The translations under genes and the position numbers were made by a program. The notes under the pieces were generated by a model. The model was given only the letters and a program-made list of their open reading frames with translations. It did not search any database and was not told where the DNA came from. A stretch of DNA of 64,000 bases from Guptibacillus hwajinpoensis (lineage in GTDB: Bacteria > Bacillota > Bacilli > Bacillales > Guptibacillaceae), in assembly GCF_020171785.1 (NCBI RefSeq), contig NZ_JAIVAE010000008.1, forward strand, positions 124,001 to 188,000, read 5' to 3'. Numbering within the stretch: position 1 is the first letter of the stretch; each line of letters opens with the position of its first letter. Below, piece after piece: positions 12,963-15,447 of the stretch.

Positions 12963-13886
12963 CTATGCCTGGCTTTCTTCATACCATTTTGGAACCATTC
13001 GATGAAAACTATCATATGTCTCTAGAACATATTCTATTGCTTCTTCGGCAAGTGAAAGATCTTGTGGAAAAAAATCCGTCGCCCAATTCATATGATAGAT
13101 AAGGATCTGGGCCATATGTACGGAACGAATTTTCCAGAAAAGTTCAGGAACTTCACCAGAAAAGTATCCTTGAATCATCCCTTTTGAAAAAGGAATGCTC
13201 AAGCGACTCGAAAACAATTCAAGCTTATCAAACTCAGAATAAGCCGTGTTTACACCACATCGGTTAAAATCAATCACACCAGCATACTTTCCATGCTGAA
13301 TAATCAGGTTTCCTGCATGATAATCATGATGCGCAAATACAAGCTTACTCTCTCCAATAAGTGGCAAGTTTCTTCTAACATAATCAATTATCTCTTGATC
13401 ATGTGAAAGACGTGTTTCGAGCTTCAAATACCGCTTGACCGCCTTCTCAAATTTAGTTGTCACAAAAGCGATATGCTCTGATTTAGAGGCAACGATGGGC
13501 AATTCGTGCATTTTCAAAAGATCTACTCCCGCTTCATACCCTGCTCTGTATTGTTCAGCCTCTGTTAAGCTAGGTAACGCCACCTCGCCATCTTCTCCTT
13601 CAAGAAAAGAAAAAATCGTGTAACAGAAATTTTCTTCCGGTATCACACCAAAGGCATACACTTCCTGACATCGAACACCACGCTCCCTAAATGCACGCAT
13701 CTTTGCTACTTTTTCTTGTACGCGCTCACTTAAAGCTAGCTCATAGATCCGAAGCAACACGTGCTGTCCCTTCCAATGTGTTGCGTATTTTAAATCATGC
13801 GAATATCCTTTTGTAATTGGAATGAGTGTCTCATCAGTCAATTCTGGGATCCTAGAGATGATTTTCTCTTTTGTAAGGTTTTTCAT
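12963..13886 (-). CDS. Aminoglycoside-phosphotransferase-family kinase
   Basis: A 307-residue protein-kinase-like phosphotransferase (PF01636). The Brenner catalytic loop is HHDYHAGNL near residue 187, followed by the metal-binding GVIDFNRC. The N-terminal lobe carries HVLLRIYE with the ATP-site Lys region replaced by Arg. The start follows AAAGGCGG. Most chromosomal members phosphorylate small molecules rather than confer resistance; the substrate is unknown. Confidence 0.82.
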   Translation of the reverse strand: MKNLTKEKIISRIPELTDETLIPITKGYSHDLKYATHWKGQHVLLRIYELALSERVQEKVAKMRAFRERGVRCQEVYAFGVIPEENFCYTIFSFLEGEDGEVALPSLTEAEQYRAGYEAGVDLLKMHELPIVASKSEHIAFVTTKFEKAVKRYLKLETRLSHDQEIIDYVRRNLPLIGESKLVFAHHDYHAGNLIIQHGKYAGVIDFNRCGVNTAYSEFDKLELFSSRLSIPFSKGMIQGYFSGEVPELFWKIRSVHMAQILIYHMNWATDFFPQDLSLAEEAIEYVLETYDSFHRMVPKWYEESQA

Positions 13887-13947
13887 TGTTCTAACCGCCT
13901 TTCTAAAGGAAATATTATCCTATCAAATATTCAGAAGAAAAGAAAGA

Positions 13948-13976
13948 TTGCCTTAATATTTTTCGTATGCTACTAT
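13948..13976 (+). promoter_or_regulatory. Probable promoter of the hisS leader transcript
   Basis: TTGCCT (13948-13953) and TACTAT (13971-13976) are 17 bp apart. Transcription would begin near 13983, only about 18 nt before the leader-peptide start, the arrangement expected for an attenuator. Confidence 0.55.
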
Positions 13977-14000
13977 ATTTGACAATAAGAGGTGAGCGAT

Positions 14001-14042
14001 ATGAAACAGTTATTCATCGTACAACTTCATCATCACAGTTAG
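14001..14042 (+). CDS. Histidine leader peptide MKQLFIVQLHHHS
   Basis: A 13-codon reading frame with a good ribosome site (AGAGGTGAG, 13988-13996) that ends in three consecutive His codons (CAT CAT CAC), one Ser and TAG. It lies directly ahead of the histidyl-tRNA synthetase gene. The stop codon is the first pair of the downstream hairpin, so a ribosome stalled on the His codons would cover that hairpin's left arm. It is too short to be a functional protein; regulation by charged tRNA-His is the straightforward reading. Confidence 0.78.
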   Translation: MKQLFIVQLHHHS

Positions 14043-14139
14043 CCTTGCTATCCGATTGATAAAAAATCGCGTATAGGAAGGCTATTGCTCGTAACCGCAT
14101 GAATTGAGAAGAACTCTTCTCCCATTCATGCGGTTTTTT
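14040..14139 (+). promoter_or_regulatory. Transcription attenuator upstream of hisS
   Basis: Two hairpins follow the leader peptide. The first (14040-14084) pairs TAGCCTT/AAGGCTA, CTAT/ATAG and CGATT/AATCG. The second (14093-14139) is a terminator with a perfect 12-bp stem AACCGCATGAAT/ATTCATGCGGTT and a T-run. When the first is open, AAAAAATCGCGT (14061-14072) can pair over 12 bp, with two wobbles, with ATGCGGTTTTTT (14128-14139), the terminator's right arm. No T-box motif is present. Confidence 0.7.
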
Positions 14140-14166
14140 GTATTCAAAAACGAAAGGATGAGCGCA

Positions 14167-15447
14167 ATGAAAAAGCTGAAAGATCAAAATGTAAAAGGAA
14201 CAATGGATTATTTACCTGAGGATGAGCGAATACGTCGAAAAGTGAGGCTAACGCTTGAGGATACGTTTATCCAATATAACTGTCTTCCGTTAGAAACGCC
14301 TATTCTAAATGAACAAAAACTAATGGCTTCCAAATACGCGGGCGGGGATGAAATCTTAGAAGAAATGTACACACTTAGCGATCGTGGGAAAAGAGAGCTT
14401 GCCCTTCGTTACGACCTTACCATTCCATTTGCAAAAGTAGTGGCAATGAATCCAGGTTTACGTATGCCATTCAAGCGATATGAAATTGGAAAAGTTTTTC
14501 GAGATGGACCTGTGAAACCGGGACGATTCCGCGAATTTACTCAATGTGATGTCGATATCACCGGCGTAAGTTCTCAAATGGCAGAAGCTGAATTAATGGA
14601 AATGGCACTTGATATTTTCAATCAACTTGAACTTAACGTAACGATTCAATATAACAATCGCAAGCTTCTTGCCGGCATGCTACAGACCCTATCGGTCCCT
14701 TCCTCGCGATTAAACGATGTTATCCTGACAATGGATAAACTCGAGAAAATTGGAATAGAAGGTGTTAAAAAAGAACTTCAACAAAAAGACATCTCTGCAG
14801 ACGCCATTCGGAACGTTGAGCGCTACGCGCAAGACTGGAGCGGTCAAAACCTCACTTATTTCCAACAATTTGCCTCCGAGAATGAGAATGTGCAAAAAGG
14901 AGTAAATGAGCTTTCTGAACTAACTTCCTATTTGGATGGACTTAACGTTCTAAAGAATTGCTCCTTTAACCCATTTCTTGCAAGAGGTCTTGATATTTAT
15001 ACCGGAACCATTTATGAGATTTTCCTCAGTGATCAGTCCATCTCATCGAGCATAGGCAGTGGCGGTCGCTATGACAGCGCTATTGCTGGTTTACTAGGCA
15101 GTGAAGAATCCTTTTCAACCGTTGGCATTTCATTCGGTCTTGATGTGATTTTCACTGCATTAAAAGGAAGGGAGTCATCACTCGTTAAGGATTCACAACC
15201 CGATTATATGATCATTCCGATCGATGCCAAGCGTGAAGCCCTAATGGTTGCCTCCACTTATCGTAAATTAGGTTATCGAGTGGAAGTAGATATGAGTGAA
15301 AAGAGAATTGGGAAATCGCTTGAACGAGCGAGTAAAAGAGGAATCGAAAAAGTCATTCTTATAGGAAACGAAGAAGTAACGAATAACAAGATTATCGTGA
15401 AGTCATTAAATGAAGGAAAAGAAGAAAGCATCTCCTTTCGTTTTTAA
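14167..15447 (+). CDS. hisS: Histidyl-tRNA synthetase
   Basis: 426 residues from ATG 14167 (behind AAAGGATGAG). Class II motif 2 is FRDGPVKPGRFREFTQCDVD near residues 115-134. The histidine-A signature is ARGLDIYTGTIYEI near 280, motif 3 is VGISFGLDVIF, and a full anticodon-binding domain follows (DYMIIPIDAKREALMVA to the C-terminus). Because HisA, motif 3 and the anticodon domain are intact, this is a charging enzyme rather than the HisZ regulator. It lacks the neighbouring aspS usual for the housekeeping hisS of Bacillus, so it may be a second, inducible copy. Confidence 0.9.
   Translation: MKKLKDQNVKGTMDYLPEDERIRRKVRLTLEDTFIQYNCLPLETPILNEQKLMASKYAGGDEILEEMYTLSDRGKRELALRYDLTIPFAKVVAMNPGLRMPFKRYEIGKVFRDGPVKPGRFREFTQCDVDITGVSSQMAEAELMEMALDIFNQLELNVTIQYNNRKLLAGMLQTLSVPSSRLNDVILTMDKLEKIGIEGVKKELQQKDISADAIRNVERYAQDWSGQNLTYFQQFASENENVQKGVNELSELTSYLDGLNVLKNCSFNPFLARGLDIYTGTIYEIFLSDQSISSSIGSGGRYDSAIAGLLGSEESFSTVGISFGLDVIFTALKGRESSLVKDSQPDYMIIPIDAKREALMVASTYRKLGYRVEVDMSEKRIGKSLERASKRGIEKVILIGNEEVTNNKIIVKSLNEGKEESISFRF

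What the first reader, a model, noticed from the sequence alone, without database searches (positions are those of the whole stretch)
13948..14167. Complete histidine-leader-peptide attenuator before a stand-alone histidyl-tRNA synthetase gene
A promoter, a 13-codon leader ending in three His codons, a hairpin that starts at the leader's stop codon and a strong terminator precede hisS. Aminoacyl-tRNA synthetases of Firmicutes are normally controlled by T-boxes, and none is visible. Ribosome stalling on His codons would open the first hairpin. Then 14061-14072 could pair over 12 bp with 14128-14139, dismantling the terminator. Leader-peptide control with histidine codons is classical for his operons of enteric bacteria, not for Bacillus hisS.
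Basis: partly seen in the sequence, partly recalled or inferred. Interest (0 to 1): 0.8.

Follow-up and report, generated by a model that had tools for sequence, protein, structure and literature searches.

The report
Histidine-sensing leader before second HisRS gene
A tiny gene rich in histidine codons, followed by a conserved RNA hairpin and a stop-transcription signal, sits before a spare histidyl-tRNA synthetase gene in Bacillus relatives, and in a few relatives the same device has been re-coded from histidine to glutamine and sits before the glutamine enzyme's operon, which suggests that its codons set what it senses.

Summary
In detail: window 13948-14139 holds a promoter, a 13-codon leader ending VQLHHHS, hairpin H1 starting at the leader's stop codon, and a terminator before a HisRS gene. 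That gene is a second, divergent HisRS; the genome's other HisRS gene has a normal T-box. The element is an old Bacillales family: 100 of 106 fetched hisS2 loci have the leader, and 59 of 62 hisS2 genomes in a 397-genome sample have the element. H1 and terminator show compensatory changes, even at the stop codon (UAG:CUA to UAA:UUA). A His leader before this hisS paralog was already predicted in bacilli in 2010. New here: in nine related genomes the same element precedes a methyltransferase-glnS (GlnRS) operon with Gln codons in place of His (VQLHHHS to LQLQQQN in one); in that family of 35 genomes a codon-blind search met no exception. A folding test in which E. coli hisL, trpL and thrL show their antiterminators finds none in this family when stalled (0 and 3 of 87). 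How stalling suppresses termination is open.

The parts
13948..13976 (+). promoter: TTGCCT (13948-13953), 17 nt, TG at 13968-13969, TACTAT (13971-13976), extended -10 type
   Evidence: sequence; same layout in 12 of 13 genus members printed; below the cut-off of the simple scan
13989..13996 (+). Shine-Dalgarno sequence of the leader (GAGGTGAG)
   Evidence: sequence; a Shine-Dalgarno-like stretch was required for the leaders listed
14001..14042 (+). leader peptide ORF MKQLFIVQLHHHS*; His codons 14028-14036
   Evidence: homologous leaders at 100 of 106 hisS2 loci; CAT/CAC kept while the preceding Leu codon varies synonymously; His codons also when found by a codon-blind model
14040..14084 (+). 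hairpin H1: begins at the leader's stop codon; G.G mismatch 14047 x 14077; apical stem CGATT/AATCG
14093..14139 (+). intrinsic terminator, stem AACCGCATGAA/TTCATGCGGTT with upper stem GAGAAG/CTTCTC, then U-tract 14134-14139
14153..14162 (+). Shine-Dalgarno region of hisS2 (AAAGGATGAG)
   Evidence: sequence
14167..15447 (+). hisS2: second, divergent histidyl-tRNA synthetase, 426 aa
   Evidence: NCBIfam NF009085 and TIGR00442 above cut-off; Pfam PF13393, PF03129

Best explanation
It is a ribosome-mediated transcription attenuator of the leader-peptide kind for a second HisRS. When charged tRNA-His is plentiful the ribosome runs through the three His codons, terminates at the stop codon and leaves; H1 and the terminator form and transcription stops before hisS2. 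When charged tRNA-His is scarce the ribosome waits on the His codons, whose first codon lies 12 or 15 nt from the base of H1, so the ribosome's leading edge sits at or in that base; more polymerases then pass the terminator and HisRS2 is made. Shown by comparison: leader, codon identity, spacing, H1 and terminator are conserved, and the same module carries Gln codons before a glnS operon, so the codons follow the synthetase. Inferred: translation, stalling and induction by starvation. Not shown: how stalling weakens termination; no classical antiterminator was found.
For: Leader with at least 2 adjacent His codons at 100 of 106 hisS2 loci (some loci are the same gene reached by two searches, 90 distinct elements). 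CM from hisS2 leaders: 60 of 63 hisS2 places, 59 of 62 genomes, have the element upstream. Compensatory change: 20 of 33 pairs changed on both sides, 171 double-changed cells against 62.5 in shuffles, 0 of 500 as high (structure drawn from the window's row); stop-codon pair GC:78 AU:9 GU:3. Ruler: 12 or 15 nt in 87 of 89 measurable hisS2 elements (90 given) and in the 5 of 9 Gln elements measured. Codon-blind model R2: 59 of 60 elements have 2-4 in-frame His codons and the last has three in another frame. Codon swap: in 35 genomes of one family 10 elements precede hisS2, all with His codons, and 9 precede methyltransferase-glnS, all with 3-4 Gln in the last 9 codons. The His-trained model, which holds no Gln member, finds two Gln elements at E 3e-14 and 1e-9 and four more at 5e-5 to 1e-3 in 98 kb. 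The other HisRS gene has a T-box.
Against: No expression data. No antiterminator by pre-terminator folding (over 0.5 in 0 of 87 at His1 and 3 of 87 at His3, but also 5 of 87 free and 5 of 87 with the stop codon in the A site), segment swap or mutual information. A ribosome on the first His codon leaves H1 nearly whole, whereas one at the stop codon opens it, which does not fit the simple picture. Six of 106 loci had no leader in the stretch scanned, though one of them, L109, has the element farther out. The Gln leaders of G259, G397 and G398 and the His leader of G415 have lost the stop codon at H1, and that of G140 runs out of frame.
Confidence: 0.82

Rival explanations
1. Attenuation: stalling opens H1 and its freed 3' half (14061-14072) pairs with the terminator's 3' arm and U-tract (14128-14139).
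For: Complementarity kept in 79.1% of cells, well above slid registers; double-changed cells 20 against 8.5, 3 of 500 shuffles as high. Strongest pairing outside H1 and the terminator in the segment table (-7.65 kcal/mol mean).
Against: The other four measures are not clearly above shuffles, and slid registers reach as many double-changed cells; no co-evolution; weaker than the terminator stem in 70 of 70; needs the U-tract free; several elements with conserved H1 have a broken A-run (rows L058, L060, L070, L072).
Confidence: 0.12
2. The ribosome senses the codons, but a trans-acting factor, or a 30S subunit binding the purine-rich H1 3' arm (AGGAAGG) once H1 is opened, hinders the terminator, instead of an RNA switch.
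For: The H1 3' arm UAGGAAGR is highly conserved and the G.G mismatch is kept in 22 of 24, more than pairing seems to need (inference); no antiterminator found.
Against: A purine-rich arm follows from pairing with a pyrimidine-rich one; no start codon is conserved after it; no direct evidence.
Confidence: 0.15
3. The short ORF is incidental and H1 plus terminator is a protein- or ligand-binding leader, for instance autoregulation by HisRS2.
For: Strong sequence conservation in H1; in G140 the leader's frame runs past the hairpin's stop.
Against: His codons and the 12/15-nt spacing are conserved, and the codons are Gln when the operon holds glnS.
Confidence: 0.04

Closest known systems
Histidine leader peptide before hisS* and hisZ of bacilli (Naville and Gautheret 2010, PMC2965389; section on hisS read whole, other passages by search)
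   Same: Same gene family by description (Bacillus hisS paralog beside a T-box hisS), short ORF with a run of His codons, premature terminator. Very probably the same family; their alignments were not seen.
   Different: A computational prediction in bacilli, with no pairing statistics in the section read and no mention of glnS or glutamine in the main text.
E. coli his operon leader, Rfam RF00514
   Same: His-codon leader, hairpin, intrinsic terminator.
   Different: No Rfam match here; controls a synthetase gene; E. coli hisL shows an antiterminator in the folding test, this family does not.
uORFC-8-2 leader before cysS in Rhodobacterales (PMC8632094, section 24 read)
   Same: Leader peptide with codons for the amino acid of the downstream aminoacyl-tRNA synthetase, hairpin and terminator.
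   Different: Other phylum and amino acid; its first stem contains the Cys codons, whereas here the hairpin starts at the stop codon.
Candidate his-operon RNA attenuators in the B. cereus group, Peptostreptococcaceae and Erysipelotrichales (PMC9413887; section 8 and passages read)
   Same: Three to five His codons in a row followed by attenuator hairpins in Firmicutes.
   Different: They precede his biosynthesis operons; hisS does not occur in the main text. The hisZ locus of this genome has no R1 match.
T-box leader, RF00230
   Same: Senses tRNA charging for synthetase genes in Firmicutes; present on the other HisRS gene of this genome.
   Different: Reads uncharged tRNA directly (established knowledge); no T-box match at hisS2.

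Membership tests
ribosome-mediated leader-peptide attenuator | translatable leader ORF with a run of codons for the relevant amino acid | tested here: met
ribosome-mediated leader-peptide attenuator | intrinsic terminator between leader and gene | tested here: met
ribosome-mediated leader-peptide attenuator | codon identity matches the regulated gene and changes with it | tested here: met
   10 hisS2 elements with His and 9 glnS-operon elements with Gln codons in one family of 35 genomes
ribosome-mediated leader-peptide attenuator | mutually exclusive antiterminator that takes up the terminator's 5' arm when the ribosome stalls (classical form) | tested here: not met
   with E. coli controls. 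A folding test, so it lowers the claim of the classical form only
ribosome-mediated leader-peptide attenuator | read-through rises when the charged tRNA is scarce | not testable with these tools
   needs expression data
hisS*/hisZ His leader of bacilli (2010) | precedes the Bacillus-type hisS paralog in a genome with a T-box hisS | tested here: met
hisS*/hisZ His leader of bacilli (2010) | sequence similarity to the published 5' UTRs | not tested
Rfam His_leader RF00514 | match to the covariance model | tested here: not met
   no match at gathering score, none among the nine matches up to E 10 in 13800-14300
T-box RF00230 | match to the covariance model before hisS2 | tested here: not met
   positive at the other HisRS gene

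The most novel reading that the evidence does not exclude
A codon-programmable attenuator module of Bacillales that works without a classical antiterminator: a ribosome waiting with its front edge at the base of a stop-codon hairpin controls a downstream terminator by some other route, and evolution has retargeted the module from histidine (hisS2) to glutamine (methyltransferase-glnS) by third-base changes in the leader.
Probability: 0.35. Interest if true: 0.75.

Novelty: new member of a known kind. Interest (0 to 1): 0.52.

Why it matters
The window's element belongs to a family predicted in 2010 but not in the Rfam copy searched. What the relatives add is a natural codon-swap experiment: the same hairpin and terminator with His codons before a HisRS gene and with Gln codons before a GlnRS operon. 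That is strong evidence, short of an experiment, that the leader codons set the signal, in a phylum where T-boxes usually do this job. One genome with a T-box on one HisRS gene and a leader peptide on the other makes the two sensing modes directly comparable. The lack of a detectable antiterminator makes the stalling-to-read-through step a concrete open question.

Tried and rejected
Equilibrium folding with the ribosome-covered stretch removed was dropped as a criterion, because the terminator also wins in E. coli hisL, trpL and thrL. All 45 segment pairs were tried for alternative helices (leader Shine-Dalgarno with the linker, H1 with the hisS2 start region and so on): only H1 (z -8.0) and the terminator (z -10.2) stand out; the next is z -2.5. 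A second short ORF after H1 was looked for in the printed alignment and dropped, since no start codon is conserved there. Nine weak R1 hits outside hisS2 and glnS (E 1.3e-4 or worse) and five weak R2 hits: most look like chance or ordinary terminators; G078/G139 are kept as notes. R2 contains six Gln members, so its E-values for them are not independent; the R1 values are. Other codon specificities: none seen in the codons read; the 348 order genomes and 299 class genomes gave no further strong element. Papers on Gln leaders: 'glutamine codons' + 'leader peptide' + 'attenuation' gave none; of 16 papers with glnS terms 15 were listed, none on Firmicutes glnS by title and abstract start, and PMC2659441 concerns Shewanella (passages). 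PMC4833913 was seen in passages only.

Rows dropped before counts: three second fragments of already listed genes; twelve opposite-strand shadows of strong hits; eight named sequences plus automatic exclusions (70 of 90 kept, 30 representatives); three truncated ones (87 of 90 kept).

Full report
What is in the window. Bases 13948-14139 carry TTGCCT-N17-TACTAT with a TG element, a leader ATG at 14001 behind GAGGTGAG, the peptide MKQLFIVQLHHHS, stop TAG at 14040, hairpin H1 14040-14084 and a terminator 14093-14139; hisS2 starts at 14167. The whole folds far better than shuffles (z -5.44). The simple scans miss promoter and terminator because of their cut-offs. No Rfam family matches.

The gene is a second HisRS. 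It passes NCBIfam NF009085 and TIGR00442. The genome has another HisRS (31% and 26% identity in two stretches; TIGR00442 518.8 bits) and a hisZ (NF008941 615 bits, cut-off 447). The other HisRS gene lies behind a T-box (129 bits, cut-off 93); the hisZ locus has neither a T-box nor this element. The nearest named relative of hisS2 in the scan is in Pseudalkalibacillus spartinae, 93% identical.

Conservation. Of 106 hisS2 loci gathered (some are the same gene reached twice), 100 have a leader with at least two adjacent His codons and a ribosome-binding site, the stop codon lying at or beside H1. Of the six without, L111 and L112 are partial matches, and L109 (G037) has the element farther upstream, 343 nt from the gene. 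The 88 distinct leaders carry 2-5 His and 0-2 Gln in the last nine codons; in the 82 with three adjacent His the codons are CAT or CAC, while the codon before them varies among TTA, CTA, CTT, TTG and CTG for Leu as well as Phe and others. Because the leader search asked for His codons, a codon-blind check was added: model R2 finds 60 elements in 61 loci given (59 before hisS2, one the orphan of G064), and 59 of them have 2-4 in-frame His codons in the nine before the element; the last, L151, has three in another frame, whose stop lies just before H1. On 90 distinct elements, H1 and terminator cells pair in 88.6%, 20 of 33 pairs show changes on both sides, and 171 double-changed cells face 62.5 in shuffles (0 of 500 as high). 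The stop codon takes part: UAG with CUA in most, UAA with UUA in nine. A G.G mismatch is kept in 22 of 24 rows of the broader alignment.

Distribution. A covariance model from these (R1) over 397 genomes of the order hits 69 genomes at E 0.01 or better. A hisS2 protein search over 397 genomes of the order finds 62 genomes. Joined by position, 60 of 63 hisS2 places have the element, all but G014 (53% identical HisRS) and the partial G079 and G038; 13 of 73 hits lie elsewhere.

The codon swap. Two of those 13, G215 (E 3.3e-14) and G238 (E 1.1e-9), precede an RlmI-like methyltransferase gene (below the families' cut-offs) followed by glnS (above TIGR00440's), and the codons where His stands are Gln: CAA CTT CAA CAA CAG AAC TAG in G215 against CAA CTT CAT CAT CAC AGT TAG in the window. 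R1 finds four more at E 5e-5 to 1e-3 in 98 kb and misses that of G140. The model that starts at the stop codon (R2) was run on all 35 held genomes of that family. It finds 10 elements before hisS2, all with His codons (G300 has SHHRY), and 9 before methyltransferase-glnS (G140 only at E 0.47), all with 3-4 Gln in the last nine codons; G165 and G140 also have one His. None of the seven Gln genomes covered has a hisS2 match. In three Gln leaders (G259, G397, G398) the stop codon at H1 has become CGG, in one His leader (G415) TTG, and in G140 the leader runs out of frame into H1. On a glnS tree of 19 proteins the seven Gln-leader genes included form one clade, 100/99, which fits a single origin. 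G300 and G358 have methyltransferase-glnS (54% methyltransferase identity) with no leader in the stretch printed, which suggests capture of the module followed by third-base changes; that is inference. The family includes Evansella: the leaders of G408 and L058 (Evansella tamaricis) encode the same peptide.

R2 on 348 order genomes: 66 have hits at E 0.02 or better; six are chance by inspection (five, G315). Of the other 60, six are the Gln type, G064 is an orphan, G160 precedes what looks like a decayed hisS2, and 52 are genomes whose element was mapped. On 299 class genomes five have hits: the window's own, two more hisS2 elements and two chance hits.

Mechanism. The first codon of the His run lies 12 or 15 nt from the first base of H1 in 87 of 89 measurable elements, and the Gln run in the five of nine measured. 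That is about the distance from the A site to the front edge of a ribosome (established knowledge), so codon and hairpin are positioned for a waiting ribosome. The next step is open. In transcripts that end before the terminator's 3' arm, the mean chance that the terminator's 5' arm pairs upstream goes from 0.03 to 0.52-0.57 in E. coli hisL, 0.30 to 0.62 in trpL and 0.40 to 0.58-0.59 in thrL on stalling, and to 0.00 in trpL and thrL with the stop codon in the A site; in the hisS2 family the median is 0.25 free, 0.12 at His1, 0.26 at His3 and 0.30 at the stop codon, over 0.5 in 5, 0, 3 and 5 of 87. Swapping segments between species shows co-evolution of H1 and terminator only, and the top pairs by mutual information are in those two hairpins, with no cross-hairpin helix. 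A ribosome on the first His codon would leave H1 nearly intact while one at the stop codon opens it; this is told against the simple picture.

Prior work. PMC2965389 (2010) predicted a His leader before hisS* and hisZ of bacilli beside the T-box hisS (section read) and has no mention of glnS or glutamine in its main text. PMC9413887 (2022) lists His-leader attenuators of his operons in three Firmicutes lineages (section read). PMC8632094 describes a Cys leader before cysS (section read). Leader attenuators on synthetase genes are thus a known kind, and the window's element is a new member of a predicted family. The Gln form was not found in print in the searches, in a library that lacks most subscription papers.

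Noticed in passing
L178, L179 (G215:C22, G238:C3) and seven further genomes of the same family: Gln-codon version of the element before an RlmI-like methyltransferase and glnS; fits a single origin on the glnS tree.
   Followed up: yes
L176:657-779 (G064:C1:760156-760278): Intact element with leader ending LVQLHHIN before a HAD/GNAT-like gene group (by eye) in a genome without a hisS2 match; an orphan after gene loss, or a new target.
   Followed up: partly
L177:671-794 (G160:C25): Decaying element before what looks like a hisS2 remnant with an early stop.
   Followed up: no
L224:2603-2722 (G078:C34): His-run leader MTQQLNVCMTIKHHHL with an unlike hairpin and terminator, about 440 nt upstream of a PF13726 permease (taken for YuiF-like; YuiF is called a histidine permease in PMC9413887).
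   Followed up: partly
L167, L168 (G078:C1, G139:C1): Leader MLRLLIVAQLHHHT with a different hairpin before a 163-aa protein; the L167 copy has no Pfam or NCBIfam match.
   Followed up: partly
L165 and G389:C8: G389 carries two hisS2 copies, each matched as two pieces in different reading frames, both behind an element.
   Followed up: no
window 12963-13886 (-): Divergently oriented APH-family phosphotransferase-like gene directly upstream of the promoter.
   Followed up: no
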